DNA from: Microgenomates group bacterium GW2011_GWF2_47_9
Lineage (GTDB): Bacteria; Patescibacteriota; Microgenomatia; UBA1400; UBA12108
Reading direction: 5' to 3'
Assembly: GCA_001003385.1 (NCBI GenBank)
Contig: LCPA01000004.1
Location: 1-34,508, forward strand
DNA length: 34,508 nt
Position 1 is the first letter of the stretch, and each line of letters opens with the position of its first letter. The translations under genes and the position numbers were made by a program. This document shows, piece by piece, positions 12,914 through 22,911 of the stretch. The notes below the pieces were generated by a model. It was not told the origin of the DNA. It was given only the letters and a program-made list of their open reading frames with translations, and searched no databases.

Positions 12914-14082
12914 AAACTTTGTGTGTAATCTTTGGTGGAATCAGTCCCGAAAATGAAGTGTCCATAATCACAGCCCTCCAAGCCATGCGGACGGCGGAAC
13001 AGACCTTTCACGTCATCGCGGTTTACGTAGATCAAAACGGGATCTGGTACACGGGCAATGAGTTAAAAAACATTTCATTCTACAAAAACATCGAGGAGGG
13101 TAAAGCTGGCCTAGCCGAGGTCACCCTCCAGAATCGTGATTCAAAGCATTATCTCGTTTCAAGGCCTGGTCTTTTCAGCCAAAAAATCCGCTTCGATTAT
13201 CTCCTACCGTGCTTTCACGGAGGTTTAGGCGAAGGAGGGTATATCCAATCAATCTGTGAATTCTACAATATTCCTCTCCTTTCTTCAGGCACAACCGGTG
13301 CGGCAATAGGCATGGACAAAGTGCTTATGAAACACAGTTTTCAAGTGGCCGGCCTTAAGCAAGCCAACTACAGCTGGATCACTCGACAAGCATGGCAAAA
13401 TAAAAAAGAGAGTGTGCTTGCCGATATCAAACGCCATCACAAACTCCCTCTCTTTGTCAAACCCTCGAGAGGTGGCTCGTCCATCGGGACTGTCAAGGTC
13501 AGTACTCACGCCAAACTTCACCAAGCCCTAGACCTTGCCGCCTCGCTCGACAGTCGCATTGTGATCGAAGACGGGATCGAGAACGCTCGAGAAATAAATG
13601 TCTCAATTCTTGGTAACGCTGGAGACAATCTCATGGCTTCGGTCTGTGAAGAAGTAGTCCACGAACCAGGGAAAGACTTTCTTGACTTCACGGAAAAATA
13701 CTTAGCTAGTGGCAAGTCACAAGGAATGGCCTCCACCAAGCGGATTATCCCCGCCAAAATCGACCAAAAATTAGCACTCAAAATTGCGGAACTCGGCAAA
13801 CAAATTTTCAACCTCCTAGACTGTTCTGGTCTCGTGCGAATTGACTTCCTTGTCAAAGGTGAGGATATCTACGTAATCGAAATCAACACCATTCCCGGTA
13901 GCCTCAGCTTCTATCTCTGGGAAAAGTCAGGCTTATCCTACCAAGAGTTAATCATCAAACTAGCAAGCTTAGCTCAGGAAAAATCAAACGAGAATAGAAG
14001 AACTATCAAGGAGTTTCCCTCAAAGATCCTTTCTAACTTTGAGTCGGCGCCAGGCGCAAAAAACAAGCTCAGGAATAGTTAG
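12910..14082 (+). CDS. ddl: D-alanine--D-alanine ligase
   Basis: ATP-grasp ligase that makes the D-Ala-D-Ala dipeptide, 390 residues. It begins with MKTLCVIFGGISPENEVS, the Ddl N-terminal motif. ATP-grasp elements follow: FVKPSRGGSSIGTVKV, VIEDGIENAREINVSILG, the omega-loop region with FTEKY, and the metal/nucleotide site GLVRIDFLV...VIEINTIPG. About 35 extra C-terminal residues beyond the usual end are lysine- and asparagine-rich. It overlaps alr by 4 nt upstream and the convergent MurF-like gene by 14 nt at its 3' end. That ligase would use its product. Confidence 0.96.
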   Translation: MKTLCVIFGGISPENEVSIITALQAMRTAEQTFHVIAVYVDQNGIWYTGNELKNISFYKNIEEGKAGLAEVTLQNRDSKHYLVSRPGLFSQKIRFDYLLPCFHGGLGEGGYIQSICEFYNIPLLSSGTTGAAIGMDKVLMKHSFQVAGLKQANYSWITRQAWQNKKESVLADIKRHHKLPLFVKPSRGGSSIGTVKVSTHAKLHQALDLAASLDSRIVIEDGIENAREINVSILGNAGDNLMASVCEEVVHEPGKDFLDFTEKYLASGKSQGMASTKRIIPAKIDQKLALKIAELGKQIFNLLDCSGLVRIDFLVKGEDIYVIEINTIPGSLSFYLWEKSGLSYQELIIKLASLAQEKSNENRRTIKEFPSKILSNFESAPGAKNKLRNS

Positions 14083-15397
14083 CAGTAACATCATTCTCGA
14101 TTAAAACGAGCGGCCTCTTCTTAAACTTTCTATGGCTCACTTCCCCGATAAAATCCAGCGTCTCATCGACTTTAACAATCTTGATTCTAGAACCAACTCC
14201 CTCTGATATATAAGTGGTGCGATCGCTCTCCCCAACCAATATGAGTAAATCTACCTTACCAACCAAATATTCACCTAACCTAAGATGAGCCGTTCTTGTC
14301 TTTTCACCAAGCTCAACAATCCCCGGTGTGACTAAAACTCTAGTTCTTGTCCGCTGTTTACCCAAGAAGGCAACCGACTCCTCAAAACTCTTCTCATTGC
14401 TACTATAGCTATTGTCAATTACTTGAAGATCCCCATACGCATGGCTGTACTCCATGCGGTGGGGTAGGGGAGTAATCCCCCCTAGGTTGTCAATCATCTG
14501 GCTCTCCTCAATCCCGATCGCAAGTGAAAGAGCCACAGCTCCCGCAATGTTCATAACATTCGACGACCCCAAGACAGGCAGGCTAACAAGGTACTCTTTA
14601 TCATTAATCCTGAACTTTCCTCGCGCGACGCCTACCTTATAATCAAATTCTTTGGTTGCGATATAACTTTGGTTACTCCCGTAGGTAAATTTTGTCTTGT
14701 ACTTGTCTGCCCTCGCCCTCACATTTTCATCTCCCACATTTAGGATCAAACTTCCCCCCGTTTGCTGAATGTACTCCGCCGTTTCAAACTTTGCCTCAAT
14801 CGTATTCTCTAGACTCCCAAATCTAGCCATATGTTGCGTTGTGATTCCCGTCAAGATGCCAAGATCAGGCTGAACCATCCTACAGAGCTTAGCAATATCT
14901 CCGCGCCCATAAGCTCCAATTTCACACAAGAAAACATCTGTCCGTGAATCAAGTTCTAAATCTACAACCCTTGAAATGCCAAGCACGGTATTGTAACTAT
15001 TTGGTGTTGAAACAACATTTTTACCCGCAAGGATTTGGCTTGCGTAATGCTTAACCGAGGTTTTGCCATAAGAGCCGGCAATGACAACTACCCTAAGACC
15101 ATATGACTTCAGTTTTCTTAATTTACTTCTGGTTTTCAAATACCAATACCTATCATAAAACGCTTTCGGCAAATTCAACAAGGCGCTCGTGAAGAGTACG
15201 GCATACCTGGCCCGTAACCCCAAGACCCTTAGACCCGTCGATAATATCAATGTAATCTTTGTTCTTTTTGTAGGCCTTGCCCTGCTTACGATTTGTTTAA
15301 CTGCCGCCGCGGTTCTTCGAACCTTCATATAGCGCGACAAATCGTACTGCTCAATCTGCAAAATCGCGATTTCCTGTCTTAATTCTTCTAAAATCAT
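14069..15397 (-). CDS. murF: Mur ligase, MurF-like, with an unusual N-terminal extension
   Basis: ATP-dependent ligase that probably adds D-Ala-D-Ala to the UDP-MurNAc peptide in the cytoplasm; 442 residues. The central domain has the P-loop AGSYGKTSVKHYA, NSYNTVLGIS, the Glu of LCEIGAYGRGDIA and TTQHMARFGSLE. The C-terminal domain has RMEYSHAYG and VIDNSYSSN. The usual MurF N-terminal UDP-binding domain is not seen. In its place are about 100 basic residues with a hydrophobic stretch (ITLILSTGLRVLG, YAVLFTSALLNL), possibly membrane-associated. It overlaps the alpha/beta hydrolase by 4 nt and is last in a long minus-strand run. Substrate identity is inferred from family and from the facing ddl. 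Confidence 0.82.
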   Translation of the reverse strand: MILEELRQEIAILQIEQYDLSRYMKVRRTAAAVKQIVSRARPTKRTKITLILSTGLRVLGLRARYAVLFTSALLNLPKAFYDRYWYLKTRSKLRKLKSYGLRVVVIAGSYGKTSVKHYASQILAGKNVVSTPNSYNTVLGISRVVDLELDSRTDVFLCEIGAYGRGDIAKLCRMVQPDLGILTGITTQHMARFGSLENTIEAKFETAEYIQQTGGSLILNVGDENVRARADKYKTKFTYGSNQSYIATKEFDYKVGVARGKFRINDKEYLVSLPVLGSSNVMNIAGAVALSLAIGIEESQMIDNLGGITPLPHRMEYSHAYGDLQVIDNSYSSNEKSFEESVAFLGKQRTRTRVLVTPGIVELGEKTRTAHLRLGEYLVGKVDLLILVGESDRTTYISEGVGSRIKIVKVDETLDFIGEVSHRKFKKRPLVLIENDVTANYS

Positions 15398-16128
15398 TTT
15401 ATGAATTCCTTTATCTTTCGGACTACAAAATCAGGCTCACTAATATGCGGATCATGCTCGGAATTCCAAGCAATTCTTACGATAATGTCTCTGACAAATT
15501 TTCGATACACTTTAGTCAAATAAACAGGTAAAACATTGTCGTTATATCCCCATATAAGCAGGGTAGGGCACTTAATTAGTTTTATCGATCTTGCCAGATT
15601 GTGAGAGACAACTGCTCGATACAAATCCCGGTTTCCGGCAGAATTTCTATAATCCTCATCCATCAGTCGATGAGCGAATCTAGTTCTGATATACCTAGGC
15701 ACGAAGAAGAAAACTTTTGATAAGAAATATAGCCCAACTCGCTTGAACGAAAACACTTTCAATCCAGCTGGATCAATCAGGATTAGTTGTACTATCTTTA
15801 TCCTGGTGGGTCGTGAGGCAAGGACAGTCCCGATTCTCCCACCTAGCGAATGCCCGACCAGAATCACTTGTTTCAACCCCAGGTACTCAATCAATCTTTG
15901 AATAAGCAGGCTATACTCATAGATTGACCTAATCCCTCTTGGTTTTGTACTTCCACCAAATCCAGGACAATCAACTGCATAGACTTTTCGCTGGTCTGAA
16001 ATTTTTTTGGCCAAGTATGACCACTCCTCTTTACTCCGCCCCCATCCATGAAAAATCACTACCGGAGTTTTCTTTCCACTTCCATATTCATCTACTGCAT
16101 AAATACTTCCGTCAACTACTACTTGCAT
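15394..16128 (-). CDS. Alpha/beta hydrolase of unknown substrate
   Basis: Serine hydrolase fold, about 244 residues. The oxyanion loop is FHGWGRS, the nucleophile elbow GHSLGG, the acid Asp in LIWGYNDNVLP and the His in EHDPHISEP, so the triad is complete. No signal peptide, hence cytoplasmic. The substrate cannot be deduced. The track start (16161) overlaps the kinase gene by 50 nt; ATG 16128 has GGAAAG 7 nt upstream and a family-like beginning (MQVVVDGSIYAVDEYGSG), so I use it. It sits between the histidine kinase and the MurF-like gene, overlapping both, which suggests co-expression with envelope or redox functions. Confidence 0.82.
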   Translation of the reverse strand: MQVVVDGSIYAVDEYGSGKKTPVVIFHGWGRSKEEWSYLAKKISDQRKVYAVDCPGFGGSTKPRGIRSIYEYSLLIQRLIEYLGLKQVILVGHSLGGRIGTVLASRPTRIKIVQLILIDPAGLKVFSFKRVGLYFLSKVFFFVPRYIRTRFAHRLMDEDYRNSAGNRDLYRAVVSHNLARSIKLIKCPTLLIWGYNDNVLPVYLTKVYRKFVRDIIVRIAWNSEHDPHISEPDFVVRKIKEFIK

Positions 16129-17509
16129 ATGGACGCTTTCCGCTAATTTCAACCCTGACAATGTTTGGCTTAATATTTCTCATTATTATCTTTAGATCAC
16201 ACTGTCTAGCGACATCCCTAACAATGGCCAGTCCCAAACCGTATCCTTTTTCGCCATACCCATACTCCTGGTATCTCCGCTCAAAAACTCGCTCCTTGTC
16301 CTGGAGAGTATGGGGCGCTGGGTTTTCGATCACGATCTTAAATCTTTGCTCCAATTCCTCATATCTAACCCTGATATAACCCGGGATTAGTGTGTACTTT
16401 GCCGCATTCTCAAGTAGATTTCGAAGAATTAATTCCAAATACCCCTCATAAATCACAAGCTCCGCGTCGTCTTGAATCTCAACCGTCACCGGGACCTTGC
16501 TGTCCAATCTTTTAACAAGTTCATTTACTTTCGCTTTCAGCTTGATCACTCGCACGCTTTCTTTGCTTTGGCTATTTATTGCAAGAGCAAGTAGAGCATC
16601 TACGTTCCTCCCGAGTCCCAAAATTTCCTGCACCAAGCCTTCTATTTTAGAGCTTACACTCTTGGAAGTTTTTAGTGCAATAACCTCTAGGCCACTCGCT
16701 ACTCGCGTCAATGGTGTTTTAAACTCATGAGAAATATTCTCACTAATCTCTCTCTGCCTAGCCAACACACTCCTTACTCTCTCCATCATCGAATTAAACG
16801 CGCTTGTCAAAACACGAGTATCGTTATCAAGGTAATCAGGGATTTCAATTCTTTTGGGCAAATTCTCGACATCCACCTGCTCCAGATACATGACCAAATG
16901 CTTTAACGGAGAGAGGGCCAATTCACTCGAACGGTAGGCCACAAAAACCGACACAATCCAGACTATTGGCAAAAGGACCATCATCGACATAACTATCGCT
17001 CTTAAGAGGATTGGCATCACATCATTAATCCGAGCAATCTGCATATAGCCGACTATCTGACTATCCGTATAAAGCGCGATACTATATGTATCAAACCTCC
17101 CATAGCGAGATAGCTCTACATCCCGGTAAATCCCTCTTTTATTCGCTAAACTCTCTCTATCGCCAACCAATATCTTCTCGATTTCCTCAGTCGATAAATC
17201 CCGGTACATCCCATACTTCACGAGCGGGCGAAAATCCTTGTCTTCGATGTACATCGCAATCTCATTGCCGCGCAGATAGGAAACCAAGGAGTCATCGCTC
17301 GATCGATCCTGTAGTTCTATGCTCCCATCCCGAACATTCAGGTATTCCGTCACAATTAGATTGGCGCTAGAAACTAATTTATTTTTAATTTGATGTTCAG
17401 TCTCAAAGAAAACTATTGCCCCAATTCCCACTCCCGCCAAGGTTGTAATGACCGTCGACAGCAGAACAACAATCCAGGTTAGCCTAGTTGATAACTTTAT
17501 TTTCCGCAT
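16112..17509 (-). CDS. Sensor histidine kinase
   Basis: Membrane kinase of 465 residues. TM1 is at about 10-34 and TM2 at 169-193, enclosing an extracytoplasmic sensor of about 130 residues with no recognisable named fold. HAMP follows at about 195-250. The HisKA motif SENISHEFKTPLTR gives phospho-acceptor His261. The ATPase domain has N-box LRNLLENAAKYT, a shortened G1 region (few acidic residues before ERRYQEYG) and G2 box KGYGLGLAIV. It overlaps its response regulator by 13 nt, the usual sign of a cognate pair. The signal is unknown; co-transcription with haem and flavin redox proteins makes a redox or metal signal a fair guess, no more. Confidence 0.93.
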   Translation of the reverse strand: MRKIKLSTRLTWIVVLLSTVITTLAGVGIGAIVFFETEHQIKNKLVSSANLIVTEYLNVRDGSIELQDRSSDDSLVSYLRGNEIAMYIEDKDFRPLVKYGMYRDLSTEEIEKILVGDRESLANKRGIYRDVELSRYGRFDTYSIALYTDSQIVGYMQIARINDVMPILLRAIVMSMMVLLPIVWIVSVFVAYRSSELALSPLKHLVMYLEQVDVENLPKRIEIPDYLDNDTRVLTSAFNSMMERVRSVLARQREISENISHEFKTPLTRVASGLEVIALKTSKSVSSKIEGLVQEILGLGRNVDALLALAINSQSKESVRVIKLKAKVNELVKRLDSKVPVTVEIQDDAELVIYEGYLELILRNLLENAAKYTLIPGYIRVRYEELEQRFKIVIENPAPHTLQDKERVFERRYQEYGYGEKGYGLGLAIVRDVARQCDLKIIMRNIKPNIVRVEISGKRPYASSS

Positions 17510-18171
17510 ACGACATATCCTTTCCCTCGCACAGTCCGGATCAATTTCTTATGGTAACCCTCATCGATTTTTTTCCTTAAATACCTAATGTGCACATCAA
17601 CGGTGTTTGAAAACAAATCCAGGCTTTCATCCCATACGTGTTCAATAAGCTCCATCCTATTTACTACTTTACATTGATTGATGCACAAATACTCTAGAAT
17701 CGAATACTCGCGTGGAGAAAGGGCAATCCTTATCTCGCCACGCTTTGCCAGCCTCAAATTTGTATCCAAAGTAAGATCTCCAATAGATAGGACCGGCGAC
17801 TCCGGGATTCTCTCTCCACGGCGAATTAGTGCTCTTATCCTAGCAATTAGCTCTTCAATATTAAACGGTTTTGACAAGTAGTCATCGGCTCCACTATTAA
17901 GTCCTTCGACAATATCCTGATGTTGGTTTCTCGATGTCAAAACCAGAATCGGGCTGTATATTCCCTTGGCCCGAATTTTAGGGATGAGTTCCACTCCTTC
18001 ACCATCGGGTAATCTCCTGTCAAGCACGATACAATCATATTGGTTAGTTTCGATCTTTGCGTCAGCCTCACCTAAATTACTGGCAATCTCCACCACAAAC
18101 GAACTCTTAGAAATGAGAGCCTTCAAATTTTTTGCGATCACCACATCATCCTCAACCAACAGGATTCTCAT
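17497..18171 (-). CDS. OmpR/PhoB-family response regulator
   Basis: 224 residues. The receiver domain has the acidic pair EDD at 7-9, phospho-acceptor Asp51 in IVLDRRLPDG, the switch Thr in VLTSRN and Lys in LSKPFN. The C-terminal winged helix has LSPREYSILEYL, VWDESLDLFSNTVDVHIRYLRKKID and RTVRGKGYV. It should bind DNA as a dimer; a binding site is not evident by eye. The start codon is 14 nt after the cytochrome b5-like gene, and TATGAT ends 6 nt before ATG, so the two-component pair may have its own leaderless promoter as well as read-through from the redox genes. Confidence 0.95.
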   Translation of the reverse strand: MRILLVEDDVVIAKNLKALISKSSFVVEIASNLGEADAKIETNQYDCIVLDRRLPDGEGVELIPKIRAKGIYSPILVLTSRNQHQDIVEGLNSGADDYLSKPFNIEELIARIRALIRRGERIPESPVLSIGDLTLDTNLRLAKRGEIRIALSPREYSILEYLCINQCKVVNRMELIEHVWDESLDLFSNTVDVHIRYLRKKIDEGYHKKLIRTVRGKGYVVCGK

Positions 18172-18185: not shown

Positions 18186-18704
18186 TTAAATCCTGTATTT
18201 CTGCATCTGCCCCAAAATCTTCTGGTTATGTTTAGACCAAAATACTGCGCTCATATCGGTATTACATTGGAATATATCCCCGCCCGAGTGAGATTTACGT
18301 AAGCTCGTTATCTCATACTTCACCCCATCAATCATAATCACGCACCCTGTAGTGGTGGGTGGGGGCGTAGGGGTAGGAGGTGGGGTAGGGGTTTGAGTAG
18401 GAGGTGGGGTAGGGGTTTGAGTAGGAGTTGGAGTGGGGGGCGGTGTTGGTGTCAACGAGGGAGTCTGGGTCGGACTTGGAGTTGTGGGGGCAGGTTTATC
18501 CGCGCTAGGGGAGGGGAGGACTGATTGAGAAGGGGTCTCAGACGTATCGCTTGGCTCAATCTCCTGACTTAATGAACCTAGCTGACTCTCATTCATATCA
18601 CTACTTACAAGCAACTGTTGGCGAGGGGTCCCGAGCATTACTATTGTCCCTACCAAGACCGCGTTTACAATCGTCATTGTCACCATAGCTTTTAATAGTT
18701 TCAT
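18186..18704 (-). CDS. Membrane-anchored cytochrome b5-like haem protein on a Pro/Thr stalk
   Basis: 172 residues in three parts. Residues about 8-25 form one membrane helix (signal anchor). Residues 45-118 are a Ser/Thr/Pro-rich linker ending in repeats of TP and PPT. Residues 119-172 read like a cytochrome b5 core: VIMIDGVKYEITSLRKSHSGG corresponds to the b5 strand plus the HPGG loop (axial His139), and SKHNQKILGQMQKYRI to the second haem His159 and the C-terminal strand. C121 and C147 could form a disulphide outside the membrane. The domain is short, with 20 residues between the histidines. It overlaps the flavocytochrome stop by one base, arguing for a partnership. Haem binding is inferred from the motif. 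Confidence 0.72.
   Translation of the reverse strand: MKLLKAMVTMTIVNAVLVGTIVMLGTPRQQLLVSSDMNESQLGSLSQEIEPSDTSETPSQSVLPSPSADKPAPTTPSPTQTPSLTPTPPPTPTPTQTPTPPPTQTPTPPPTPTPPPTTTGCVIMIDGVKYEITSLRKSHSGGDIFQCNTDMSAVFWSKHNQKILGQMQKYRI
18373..18420 (+). repeat. Two perfect 24-bp tandem copies in the stalk-coding region
   Basis: GTAGGAGGTGGGGTAGGGG followed by TTTGA is repeated exactly twice (18373-18396, 18397-18420), with a third degenerate copy following. On the minus strand it encodes an eight-residue TQTPTPPP unit. The plus (template) strand is G-rich with four or more G-tracts within 40 nt, so it could slip during replication or form a quadruplex. Confidence 0.85.
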
Positions 18705-19963
18705 TATTTGAATCCAAAATCTTCAAAAATAATTTGTTTTCTTTTTACTCCATGCCCTATCAATTGTCTCTCTAAACCCTTCATCATCATCTCTGGTCCA
18801 CATAGAAAGAAAAACTTGTTTTTCAGAGAATCAACATATTTGGCAATGACCGGAGCTGTCAATCTGCCCAGTTCACTTGTCCGATACGGAAACCATCTAA
18901 AATTAGGATGGAGGTAGCTATATGCTTCAAAAATTCCCGCTAGGATCTTGGGTGCCCGCTTACTCGTTGTATGAATCATTAGCACATTTTGCCCGCTAGT
19001 TAATTTTTTCATCATGCTCGCATACGGAGTAATCCCAATCCCACCCGCTATCCACACCATATCGTTCTTTCGAAAAGCCACCCTCCCAAATGTCCCATAT
19101 GGGCCTCTCACCGTTACTTTGGAACCTACAGAAAGTCTCATCATGGAAAGTGTAAAGTCTCCAATCACTTTAAGCCCAATCTTTATTCTCCCGTTCTCTT
19201 CATCCAACACCGAAAAAGGATGCTCATCTCTTTTTCGACCCGGCCTTTCTATTTCGAAAAAAGCATATTGGCCTGGTTCAAAATAGATTGGCTTTGTTTG
19301 AGCAGTTGGTACAAGCTCAGCCACTACCGCCTCATCCTCTTGTGTGATTCTTTCCAAGATGTAGTTATTTCTTGGCAAAAGTAGGTAGTATAGATACCGC
19401 TTATATATAAAGACTGAAACCGCCATCAAACTCCAAAATAATACCCATACCTTTAAAGGAAGAAACCTTGATACGTCAGATACAACCAAGATCCCATGGA
19501 GTGCTCCCAAGATTACCACCAAACCCATCCACTCATGTGTCTTTTTCCAGAACCAATAAGGCAAATCTACGTACAATGTCAATGAAAGCAAAATGAATAA
19601 TAAGTATAGCGCCAAGATCCCGAGAGTATAGGCCAAACTCACTCCGGGCACTAAATAGGTTGAAAGGGTGTTAGCAGGCAAAGAATCAATTATGAGAAAT
19701 AGGGGATGATTTACCAAAAAGATGAATGCACCTGCCCCCAAAATATGATGGATCTTATAAGCCTTATCGAGCCCTCCAAACAAACGCTCAAGTATCCTAT
19801 GACGTAAAGCCAAAATATATGTCCAAGAAAGCCCGATTAACCCTAGTAAACCGGTCAGCTGTGCCAGTCCCTGCCACAATCCAGTCCCAGGTACTGCTAA
19901 CTTTGCCTGAAAATAAAGCCACAAAGTTATCAGGATGGAAACGCCTATCATTGTCAATCCCAT
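18704..19963 (-). CDS. Ferric-reductase/NOX-like transmembrane flavocytochrome
   Basis: 419 residues: six membrane helices (to about residue 190) followed by a cytoplasmic FAD/NAD(P)H reductase. Four haem-ligand histidines fit the bis-haem pattern of ferric reductases: His72-X13-His86 in the third helix and His143-X12-His156 in the fifth. The FAD motif HPFS is at 248-251, the pyridine-nucleotide loop GGIGITP at 307-313, and CGP at 388-390 followed by a C-terminal Phe-rich end (FEDFGFK). The expected reaction is cytosolic NAD(P)H to FAD to two haems to an outer acceptor; whether that is ferric iron, oxygen or a b5 partner cannot be seen. It abuts the MAPR-like gene (0 nt) and overlaps the b5 gene (1 nt). 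Confidence 0.92.
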   Translation of the reverse strand: MGLTMIGVSILITLWLYFQAKLAVPGTGLWQGLAQLTGLLGLIGLSWTYILALRHRILERLFGGLDKAYKIHHILGAGAFIFLVNHPLFLIIDSLPANTLSTYLVPGVSLAYTLGILALYLLFILLSLTLYVDLPYWFWKKTHEWMGLVVILGALHGILVVSDVSRFLPLKVWVLFWSLMAVSVFIYKRYLYYLLLPRNNYILERITQEDEAVVAELVPTAQTKPIYFEPGQYAFFEIERPGRKRDEHPFSVLDEENGRIKIGLKVIGDFTLSMMRLSVGSKVTVRGPYGTFGRVAFRKNDMVWIAGGIGITPYASMMKKLTSGQNVLMIHTTSKRAPKILAGIFEAYSYLHPNFRWFPYRTSELGRLTAPVIAKYVDSLKNKFFFLCGPEMMMKGLERQLIGHGVKRKQIIFEDFGFK

Positions 19964-20314
19964 TTACCGATACCTCCCCACTACCTGATATTTCTTTTTA
20001 ATTATTTCTGCTCCAAACACATGGAGTGGTTGACTAGCATCCCGGCCTACCAAATAATGGTAGCTCTCTCCCGGACCATAATACATCTCACGACCCATAC
20101 TTACATCATACACAAGCCCGTCTAACGCCAGATAGATCGGTTTGTTGGGATCTGTTCCATCAAATCTCATTAGCGCCTCACTATCGTACTCAGGCAAGGG
20201 CTGGTCTATCGATTCATTTATCCTGGCTGGCCAATAATAGCGGGTAAGCAGGGCGGCCAACAGTATAGTGGCCGCCGTGATTACCAAGCCTGTGCGTGCG
20301 CGTTTGACCTTCAT
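19964..20314 (-). CDS. Membrane-anchored MAPR-type cytochrome b5-like haem protein
   Basis: 116 residues: a basic N-terminus, one membrane helix at about 9-25, then a cytochrome b5-like domain of the membrane-associated progesterone receptor (MAPR) type. Matching segments are ALMRFDGTDPNKPIYLALDG and VYDVSMGREMYYGPGESYHY, followed by GRDAS. In PGRMC1 the corresponding loop supplies a tyrosine haem ligand; here Tyr78/79 and Tyr85 are in place, and no HPGG histidine exists. The domain would face outside. It is 11 nt after the acidic-tail gene and directly before the flavocytochrome. Haem ligation by tyrosine is inferred from the family. Confidence 0.8.
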   Translation of the reverse strand: MKVKRARTGLVITAATILLAALLTRYYWPARINESIDQPLPEYDSEALMRFDGTDPNKPIYLALDGLVYDVSMGREMYYGPGESYHYLVGRDASQPLHVFGAEIIKKKYQVVGRYR

Positions 20315-20325
20315 TTGCCTAAACC

Positions 20326-20778
20326 TTAGTCTTCGTCCTCGTCATGCTCGTCTTCATCCTCATCCTCCCGATCCTCTTTTTCGTCCTCATCGTCTTCTTC
20401 GTCCTCATCTTCAAACTCGATCTCATCATCGTCATCGAAATCATCCCCCAAGTTAGGATTAATGCTAGCCGCGGGGAAACCACCATCCGGTAGGGTAGCG
20501 GAAATAGTGGGGGAGGGGAAGACAGTCGGATCGGGTGTAGAAATAGGCTCGTCGAGCACAATCTCGTCATCTACGATCTGACTAGAATTGGAAGGCGAAG
20601 GGACGCCCAAAGGAGAGGGTGCTGTCGACGGAGAAGGCGACGGCACAGTAATGGGTGGCACTTCATCTTCTACTGTCTCACTCCTTGCTAATACTTTGTA
20701 ACCGGCAACCCCACTCCCAGCCAATGTTCCACTCACCAAGAGTCCTGCAACTATTTTTTTGATAATTTCTAGGTCCAT
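20326..20778 (-). CDS. Exported protein with Ser/Pro linker and Asp/Glu-rich tail
   Basis: 150 residues, not matched to a family. The N-terminus (IIKKIVAGLLVSGTLAGSGVAG) is a signal peptide or anchor. Residues about 40-100 are rich in Pro, Ser, Thr and Val. From about residue 112 the chain is almost entirely Asp and Glu, with one His near the end. Such a tail could bind metal cations or dock a basic partner; both are guesses. It is first in the redox run after an 85-nt gap. A TATAAT element and the ribosome site GGAAAGGA precede it. Its small size and composition mean homology searches will give mostly low-complexity hits. Confidence 0.7.
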   Translation of the reverse strand: MDLEIIKKIVAGLLVSGTLAGSGVAGYKVLARSETVEDEVPPITVPSPSPSTAPSPLGVPSPSNSSQIVDDEIVLDEPISTPDPTVFPSPTISATLPDGGFPAASINPNLGDDFDDDDEIEFEDEDEEDDEDEKEDREDEDEDEHDEDED

Positions 20779-21777: not shown

Positions 21778-22911
21778 ATGAAAAGATTCCTCCTACTCCT
21801 ATTGGGATTCTTATTCCTCTTATTATTTGGGCATTCTCGCCTCGACAATAGTGACCTGCCTATTGCTGATTCTCTTGACTATCTTTCTACCCCCAAAAAC
21901 TTTAGGGTTGAAGTTCTAAGTAACAAAGTTGTCGGGGCTCGCAGTCTCACAAAAAGCAGAGATGGAGTCATCTACATTGGAACTCGCAAAGAAGGGGTTG
22001 TCTATGCGCTATATGATTCAAACGGCGATACCATACCAGACAAAACTCAAGTTGTCATAAGTGAACTCAATAGCCCAAACGGAGTTGCCTATCACAACAA
22101 AGACCTCTACATCGCCGAAATCGATCGGGTGATCGTTTTGCGAAACATCGACGAGAATTTCCAAAATAGCCCCAAATACGAAATAGTCATTAAACAACTT
22201 CCAAACTCAGAACACCACGGTTGGCGATATCTCAAAGTTGGTCCCGACTCAAAATTGTACCTTAGTATCGGCGCACCTTGTAACGTCTGTGAACTCAATT
22301 ATCCCCTTGGTTCGATAGCTAGAATGAATCTAGATGGCTCAGATTTTGAAGTAATCGCGACCGGGATCCGCAACAGCGTTGGCTTCTCCTGGTCACCCCT
22401 GGACAATTCCCTATGGTTCACCGACAATGGACGAGACTGGCTCGGAGACAACGCCCCGGCCGATGAACTAAACCATCTGTCAGGCACCACCAATAATTTC
22501 GGCTTTCCTTATTGTCATGCGGGAGAAATCCTGGATCCTATCTTTGGGAAGGGGAGACAATGTAATTCCTACGCCAACCCTGCGATCAAGCTCGCCCCCC
22601 ACGCCGCCGCACTTGGCATAACATTCTATACCGGTAGTATGTTCCCAAGCGAATACAAACAAAAAATTTTTATCGCTGAACATGGCTCCTGGAACCGAAA
22701 AGAGCCAATCGGGTATCGCATCACTACTGTAGAACTAAAGGATAATCAAGCAGTAAACTACGAAGTCTTCGCCGAAGGGTGGCTAGACAAATCAGGTAGT
22801 CCCCTTGGCAGGCCGGTAGACATCCTAGAAATGAATGACGGCTCACTCGTCGTCTCAGACGACCTCTCAGGCACGATCTATCGTATTATCTACTCCTCGC
22901 TCCCAGAATGA
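21778..22911 (+). CDS. Exported PQQ-dependent sugar (sorbosone-type) dehydrogenase-like beta-propeller
   Basis: 377 residues: a hydrophobic signal sequence (1-18), then a six-bladed propeller of the soluble glucose/L-sorbosone dehydrogenase family. Family marks are NSPNGVAY, HHGWRYLKVGPD (candidate catalytic His146/147), LSIGAPCNVC, ATGIRNSVGFSW (Arg198), WFTDNGRDWLGD, and FIAEHGSWNR. If active, it oxidises an aldose or aldehyde outside the cell using PQQ and Ca2+. PQQ biosynthesis genes are not in the window, so the cofactor might be scavenged, or the protein may be a non-PQQ propeller. It lies head-to-head with the membrane-protein and redox run and overlaps the recombinase gene tail to tail by 22 nt. 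Confidence 0.82.
   Translation: MKRFLLLLLGFLFLLLFGHSRLDNSDLPIADSLDYLSTPKNFRVEVLSNKVVGARSLTKSRDGVIYIGTRKEGVVYALYDSNGDTIPDKTQVVISELNSPNGVAYHNKDLYIAEIDRVIVLRNIDENFQNSPKYEIVIKQLPNSEHHGWRYLKVGPDSKLYLSIGAPCNVCELNYPLGSIARMNLDGSDFEVIATGIRNSVGFSWSPLDNSLWFTDNGRDWLGDNAPADELNHLSGTTNNFGFPYCHAGEILDPIFGKGRQCNSYANPAIKLAPHAAALGITFYTGSMFPSEYKQKIFIAEHGSWNRKEPIGYRITTVELKDNQAVNYEVFAEGWLDKSGSPLGRPVDILEMNDGSLVVSDDLSGTIYRIIYSSLPE

What the first reader, a model, noticed from the sequence alone, without database searches (positions are those of the whole stretch)
18186..18704. Stalked His/His cytochrome b5-like domain in a tiny anchored protein
Seen: signal anchor, about 70 residues of Ser/Thr/Pro with TP/PPT repeats, then IDGVKYEITSLRKSHSGG and SKHNQKILGQMQKYRI, which line up with the two haem histidines and terminal strand of cytochrome b5. 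A haem domain held away from the membrane by a flexible stalk would suit a mobile electron shuttle reaching through the cell wall. Two cysteines could lock the short fold.
Basis: partly seen in the sequence, partly recalled or inferred. Interest (0 to 1): 0.62.

Follow-up and report, generated by a model that had tools for sequence, protein, structure and literature searches.

The report
Tethered cytochrome b5 in bacterial NOX operon
The gene encodes a tiny membrane-anchored protein that carries a shortened cytochrome b5 haem domain on a flexible proline/threonine leash, and it sits next to an NADPH-oxidase-like enzyme, so it probably carries electrons from inside a very small (CPR) bacterium to something outside the membrane.

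Summary
The minus-strand ORF 18186-18704 (172 aa) has an N-terminal anchor, a 70-residue stalk that is 80% Pro/Thr/Ser, and a 53-residue C-terminal domain. Its only histidines (139, 159) and cysteines (121, 147) are almost invariant among relatives. Alone it misses the PF00173 cut-off (13.3 against 23.7 bits), but all 15 aligned relatives match PF00173, the family profile hits cytochrome b2 (3ks0, E=3e-7), and the AlphaFold model matches solved b5 structures (TM 0.77). All 14 class genomes with the strong b5 domain also have the reductase (26 of 374 do). Fifteen operon genomes lack ferrochelatase and the two terminal oxidases searched. Best reading: NAD(P)H to FAD to two membrane haems to tethered b5 to an unknown external acceptor, with haem probably scavenged. 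A CPR operon of MAPR-like b5, two other b5 proteins, ferric reductase, TSPO and two-component system was reported in a 2021 preprint, which I could read only as summarised elsewhere.

The parts
18186..18704 (-). Stalked compact cytochrome b5-like protein, 172 aa: anchor (aa 6-24), P/T/S-rich tether (about aa 50-119), haem domain (aa 120-172; H139/H159, C121/C147)
18189..18347 (-). C-terminal b5-like domain (53 aa)
   Evidence: PF00173 genome search; profile and fold
18348..18557 (-). Coding sequence of the Pro/Thr/Ser tether (about aa 50-119); contains a 24-bp x2.8 tandem repeat at 18373-18439
18704..19963 (-). NOX/ferric-reductase-like transmembrane NAD(P)H oxidoreductase, 419 aa; H72/H86 and H143/H156 haem ligands, HPFSV (FAD), GIGITP (NAD(P)H)
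   Evidence: PF01794, PF00175, PF08022; SpNOX 8qt6 E=1.3e-25 over residues 40-419; His spacing 14 and 13 in 40/40 homologues
19964..20314 (-). Anchored MAPR-type cytochrome b5-like protein (cytb5MY-like, YYGPGESYHYLVGRDAS), 116 aa
   Evidence: PF00173 E=2.4e-8; 1t0g E=2.4e-11 and PGRMC1 4x8y E=7.9e-8
20326..20778 (-). Anchored protein with Pro-rich middle and polyacidic tail (33 of last 40 residues D/E), 150 aa; in other genomes the protein at this place often carries a b5 domain
17497..18171 (-). OmpR-type response regulator
   Evidence: PF00072, PF00486; conserved neighbour
16112..17509 (-). Membrane sensor histidine kinase
   Evidence: PF02518, PF00512, PF00672; conserved neighbour

Best explanation
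The protein is an extracytoplasmic, membrane-anchored, bis-His haem-b electron carrier: a shortened cytochrome b5 domain on a flexible P/T tether. It probably takes single electrons from the outer haem of the NOX-like reductase encoded immediately upstream (NAD(P)H to FAD to inner haem to outer haem) and, by diffusing on its leash, passes them to an acceptor beyond the membrane. This would let a fermenting cell without the searched terminal oxidases dispose of reducing equivalents or keep surface components reduced. The MAPR-type b5 and the acidic-tailed protein would be parts of the same membrane assembly, and the two-component system would switch it on. Shown by sequence: fold family, ligand residues, anchor, tether, operon, co-inheritance. 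Inferred: haem binding, direction of flow, partner contacts, disulphide, acceptor.
For: b5 identity. The NOX-like neighbour has four haem histidines at SpNOX spacing (14 and 13; SpNOX H69/H83/H129/H142 in PMC5676040) and the published NOX FAD and NADPH motifs. Genes overlap or abut: the reductase stop codon and the b5 start codon share base 18704. In other genomes the b5 gene is within 100 nt of the reductase on the same strand for 26 of 36 strong family members, and all 14 strong-b5 genomes of the class have the reductase, which 26 of 374 genomes have. The order MAPR b5, reductase, stalked b5, RR, HK recurs in many families. SpNOX reduces cytochrome c directly under anaerobic conditions, and its authors propose an unidentified protein acceptor (PMC11564096). 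(PT)x-tethered haems passing electrons by tethered diffusion are demonstrated for PgcA (PMC11520253). Operon genomes lack haem-copper oxidase and cytochrome bd oxidase.
Against: No experiment exists. Haem binding is unproven, and these genomes lack ferrochelatase, so haem must come from outside. The stalk is as short as 13-18 residues in some operon homologues (L016, L026, L017), so a long reach is not essential. Five homologues lie in loci where no reductase was found (L093, L096-L099). The external acceptor is not identified. The model rests on a 6-sequence alignment (pLDDT 80).
Confidence: 0.68

Rival explanations
1. Assimilatory iron reduction: the NOX-like protein and the b5 proteins reduce Fe(III) complexes at the cell surface for uptake, and the two-component system senses metal.
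For: The reductase scores to the ferric-reductase Pfam families. The kinase and regulator resemble the heavy-metal CopS/CopR group best, although below cut-off. Polyacidic tails could bind metal ions.
Against: No iron transporter belongs to the recurrent core order, though only selected queries were used on the neighbours. SpNOX ferric reductase activity is very slow (PMC11564096). Iron uptake does not obviously need two or three b5 proteins.
Confidence: 0.13
2. Haem or porphyrin handling: the b5 and MAPR domains capture external haem for a cell that cannot make it, and the reductase keeps the bound haem reduced or releases its iron.
For: No ferrochelatase in 15 operon genomes. TSPO in 21 of 25 operon genomes and just upstream of the operon in G395. 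Several haem proteins in one operon.
Against: The b5 family keeps two His ligands, typical of tight haem binding for electron transfer rather than hand-over of haem. TSPO is elsewhere in most genomes. A NOX module is not needed for a haemophore.
Confidence: 0.1
3. NOX-type oxidant production: the reductase makes superoxide or peroxide, and the b5 proteins are accessory or protective.
For: SpNOX is the closest solved relative and reduces oxygen in vitro.
Against: A superoxide-producing NOX needs no dedicated b5 carrier. The close coupling of b5 and reductase genes suggests that the b5 is the acceptor.
Confidence: 0.05
4. The b5 resemblance is superficial and the domain is a haem-free adhesion or binding module on a surface stalk.
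For: The single sequence is below the Pfam cut-off. Some bacterial surface proteins have P/T stalks (general knowledge).
Against: The two His are conserved in register, 15 of 15 relatives hit PF00173, the fold matches b5, and the operon is full of redox proteins.
Confidence: 0.04

Closest known systems
CPR cytb5MY / ferric-reductase / TSPO / two-component operon (Tamarit et al. 2021 preprint, doi 10.1101/2021.11.17.468889, as summarised in PMC10093951)
   Same: MAPR-like b5, further b5 proteins, ferric-reductase-like enzyme and two-component system in one operon of membrane proteins in CPR bacteria.
   Different: In this window TSPO is not in the operon, and one of the two extra b5 places is taken by an acidic-tailed protein without a b5 domain. 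Whether the preprint described the compact Cys-pair domain, the P/T tether or the SpNOX-type motifs could not be checked (the preprint is not held).
Cytochrome b5 / flavocytochrome b2 b5 domain (PF00173)
   Same: HxGG first ligand, second His, core fold.
   Different: About 53 residues; three residues deleted after HxGG so the ligands are 20 apart instead of 23 (cytochrome b2); mostly HSGG in place of HPGG; an invariant Cys pair; predicted extracytoplasmic.
Ectothiorhodospira cytochrome b558 (1cxy)
   Same: Prokaryotic b5 with Cys at the positions aligned to both family cysteines (shown by way of the canonical CPR b5 of L023).
   Different: Full-length b5 without the short ligand loop; its gene context was not examined.
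SpNOX (Streptococcus pneumoniae NADPH oxidase)
   Same: The reductase 18704-19963 aligns over 380 residues and has the four-His spacing, HPF[ST] and GxGxTP motifs.
   Different: SpNOX has no known protein acceptor; here the reductase is encoded together with b5 proteins.
PgcA of Geobacter sulfurreducens
   Same: Haem domains on flexible (PT)x tethers outside the membrane, working by tethered diffusion.
   Different: PgcA is a triheme c-type cytochrome; this is a single b-type haem domain of unrelated fold anchored to the membrane.

Membership tests
Cytochrome b5 (PF00173) | Profile score of this protein over Pfam's own cut-off | tested here: not met
   13.3 bits against cut-off 23.7; as a family, 15/15 members match with best E 1.1e-9
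Cytochrome b5 (PF00173) | Two axial His, the first in H[PS]GG | tested here: met
   H139 and H159 are the only His; aligned to the cytochrome b2 ligands; conserved in the family
Cytochrome b5 (PF00173) | b5 fold | tested here: met
   AlphaFold pLDDT 80.4; all 50 listed PDB matches are b5 or b5-domain proteins, TMq up to 0.77, rmsd 1.8 A
Cytochrome b5 (PF00173) | Binds haem b (Soret about 412 nm, alpha 556-560 nm) | not testable with these tools
   needs expressed protein
MAPR / cytb5MY (Tyr-ligated) | Tyr rather than His ligand, MAPR-type motif | tested here: not met
   P0001 has His ligands; it is the neighbour P0003 that matches MAPR proteins
CPR cytb5MY operon (Tamarit preprint) | MAPR-like b5 + other b5 + ferric-reductase-like + two-component system | tested here: met
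   definition from PMC10093951
CPR cytb5MY operon (Tamarit preprint) | TSPO gene in the operon | tested here: not met
   the TSPO hit lies at the edge of another contig (C1:48099-48275); adjacent to the operon only in G395
[quoted passage not shown]
   H72/H86/H143/H156, HPFSV, GIGITP; 4 of 40 homologues have Gln at position 143
PgcA-type tethered cytochrome | c-type haem CXXCH motifs joined by (PT)x | tested here: not met
   no CXXCH in P0001; the (PT)x tether is present, so it may work like PgcA without being a member

The most novel reading that the evidence does not exclude
A dedicated bacterial NOX-to-b5 electron export chain: the tethered compact b5 is the missing protein acceptor of a bacterial NOX-type enzyme, and in these apparently haem-auxotrophic CPR cells it is the main route by which NAD(P)H electrons leave the cell, possibly to a host cell or a mineral.
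Probability: 0.3. Interest if true: 0.85.

Novelty: new variant of a known kind. Interest (0 to 1): 0.6.

Why it matters
CPR bacteria are usually described as fermenters without electron transport chains, and the physiological acceptors of bacterial NOX enzymes are unknown. A conserved, regulated operon that pairs a NOX-like reductase with tethered b5 carriers gives a concrete, testable electron-export pathway for these cells, and a reason why cells that apparently cannot make haem keep several haem proteins.

Tried and rejected
A chance b5-like motif in low-complexity sequence was rejected because the conserved positions lie in the non-repetitive C-terminal domain and recur in relatives with quite different stalks. 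Stalk-only database hits (dihydrolipoyl succinyltransferase linkers, immunoglobulin-blocking protein and others) come from composition and were ignored. The stalk as a Fe(III)-oxide binder ((S/T)P(S/T), 11 motifs) is weakened by the PgcA work, which found no contribution of (PT)x to mineral binding, and by relatives that lack such motifs. A fixed-length 'ruler' stalk was rejected because stalk length runs from about 13 to 130 residues. A lipoprotein was rejected because there is no Cys before residue 121. The viral-contig scan found no relatives.

Full report
Observation. ORF 18186-18704 on the minus strand encodes 172 residues. It starts with a short basic stretch and one hydrophobic segment (residues 6-24). 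The next part is polar, and residues 50-119 are 27 Pro, 21 Thr and 8 Ser of 70, encoded partly by a 24-bp tandem repeat. The last 53 residues form the domain. The only histidines are 139 and 159 and the only cysteines 121 and 147. There is no Cys near the N-terminus, so it is not a lipoprotein; an uncleaved anchor with the domain outside is the simplest topology (inference).

Is it a b5 domain? On its own the protein is below Pfam's cut-off for PF00173 (13.3 bits against 23.7; E=0.089), so one sequence alone does not prove it. Searches of related genomes and one public scan gave relatives. An alignment of 15 shows Cys121, Tyr130, His139, Gly141, Gly142, Phe145, Cys147 and Asp150 invariant, and His159 in 14 of 15 in register; the exception, G002, has its second His three residues further on, in the sequence SPRH. 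All 15 members hit PF00173 (best 1.1e-9). A profile of the family finds the b5 domain of flavocytochrome b2 at E=3.3e-7, then other cytochromes b5, with both histidines aligned to the haem ligands. An AlphaFold model from six sequences (pLDDT 80.4) matches cytochromes b5 throughout its PDB list (TMq up to 0.77, rmsd 1.8 A). The domain is a shortened b5: the ligands are 20 residues apart, against 23 in cytochrome b2. I conclude that it is a compact cytochrome b5. Haem binding itself is inferred.

The cysteines. Both are invariant in the family. Canonical b5 domains of related genomes carry Cys at the same two places, and through one of them (L023) so does the solved bacterial cytochrome b558, 1cxy.

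Surroundings. The gene lies in a tight minus-strand cluster. Upstream are a 150-aa anchored protein with a polyacidic tail (20326-20778), a 116-aa anchored MAPR-type b5 (19964-20314; nearest solved 1t0g E=2.4e-11 and PGRMC1 8e-8), and a 419-aa reductase (18704-19963) whose stop codon overlaps the b5 start codon by one base. Downstream are an OmpR-type regulator and a sensor kinase. The reductase aligns over residues 40-419 with SpNOX, 8qt6 (E=1.3e-25; identity of 8qt6 from PMC11564096). Its haem histidines are spaced 14 and 13 apart in 40 of 40 homologues (one position is Gln in four of them), the same spacing as the SpNOX ligands H69, H83, H129 and H142 (PMC5676040). The published NOX motifs for FAD (HPFSV) and NAD(P)H (GIGITP) are present.

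Conservation of the arrangement. In 26 of 36 strong relatives the reductase lies on the same strand within 100 nt, and the order MAPR b5, reductase, stalked b5, regulator, kinase recurs in many families. In the class sample of 374 genomes, 26 have the reductase, and all 14 genomes with a strong b5 domain are among them (hypergeometric about 1e-18 if genomes were independent; shared ancestry is not corrected for). Some reductase genes instead neighbour proteins with two or three canonical b5 domains (L116, L119, L121), so pairing with b5 proteins recurs. Named relatives are Candidatus Liptonbacteria and Candidatus Dojkabacteria, so the window is very probably from a CPR (Patescibacteria) genome; G000 is 0.71 Mb.

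Two kinds of stalked b5. The b5 proteins encoded upstream of the reductase have extensions behind the domain that usually end in an acidic tail, while those downstream end right after the domain. In the window and in several relatives the upstream protein keeps the anchor, the Pro-rich part and the acidic tail but has no b5 domain. The acidic tail therefore probably has a use of its own (inference).

Physiology. None of 15 operon genomes has a ferrochelatase, haem-copper oxidase subunit I or cytochrome bd subunit I, while many of the control genomes do. The cells appear unable to make haem by the known last step and lack these terminal oxidases. TSPO, a porphyrin-binding membrane protein, is present in 21 of 25 operon genomes, next to the operon only in G395.

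Mechanism. Best explanation (0.68): NAD(P)H electrons pass through FAD and two membrane haems of the NOX-like protein to the tethered b5 outside, which diffuses on its leash to an acceptor. SpNOX can reduce cytochrome c directly without oxygen, and its authors suggest an unknown protein partner. Haem domains on (PT)x linkers passing electrons by tethered diffusion are demonstrated for PgcA. Stalk length ranges from about 13 to 130 residues, which suits a flexible leash rather than a ruler and shows that a long reach is not essential.

Known or new. PMC10093951 summarises a 2021 preprint (Tamarit et al.) with a reconstructed CPR operon of a MAPR-like b5, two other b5 proteins, a putative ferric reductase, TSPO and a two-component system. 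The window is an instance of that operon, with TSPO elsewhere and one b5 place taken by a b5-less acidic protein. I did not find descriptions of the compact Cys-pair domain, the P/T leash or the SpNOX-type identity, but the preprint itself could not be read. I rate it a new variant of a known kind.

Noticed in passing
window 20326-20778 (-): Acidic-tailed anchored protein at the head of the operon; in other genomes the protein at this place often carries one or two b5 domains, so the window copy may have lost them or represent the plain form.
   Followed up: partly
L116, L119, L121: Proteins with two or three canonical b5 domains next to and divergent from a NOX-like reductase gene: another recurrent b5/NOX pairing.
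   Followed up: partly
L059, L061, L064, L028: In 4 of 40 reductases one TM haem ligand (H143 in the window) is replaced by Gln while the others are kept.
   Followed up: no
L128 2021-2428 (G395 C6): TSPO gene a few hundred bases upstream of the operon, with a cupin-like ORF between; in G000 the TSPO gene is cut by the end of contig C1.
   Followed up: partly
window 21778-22911 (+): Glucose/sorbosone dehydrogenase-like protein (PF07995) encoded near the operon on the other strand; a possible extracytoplasmic oxidoreductase.
   Followed up: no
window 14069-16161 (-): An alpha/beta-hydrolase-like ORF and a Mur-ligase-like ORF follow the kinase gene with overlaps, possibly on the same transcript (assignments by eye only).
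   Followed up: no
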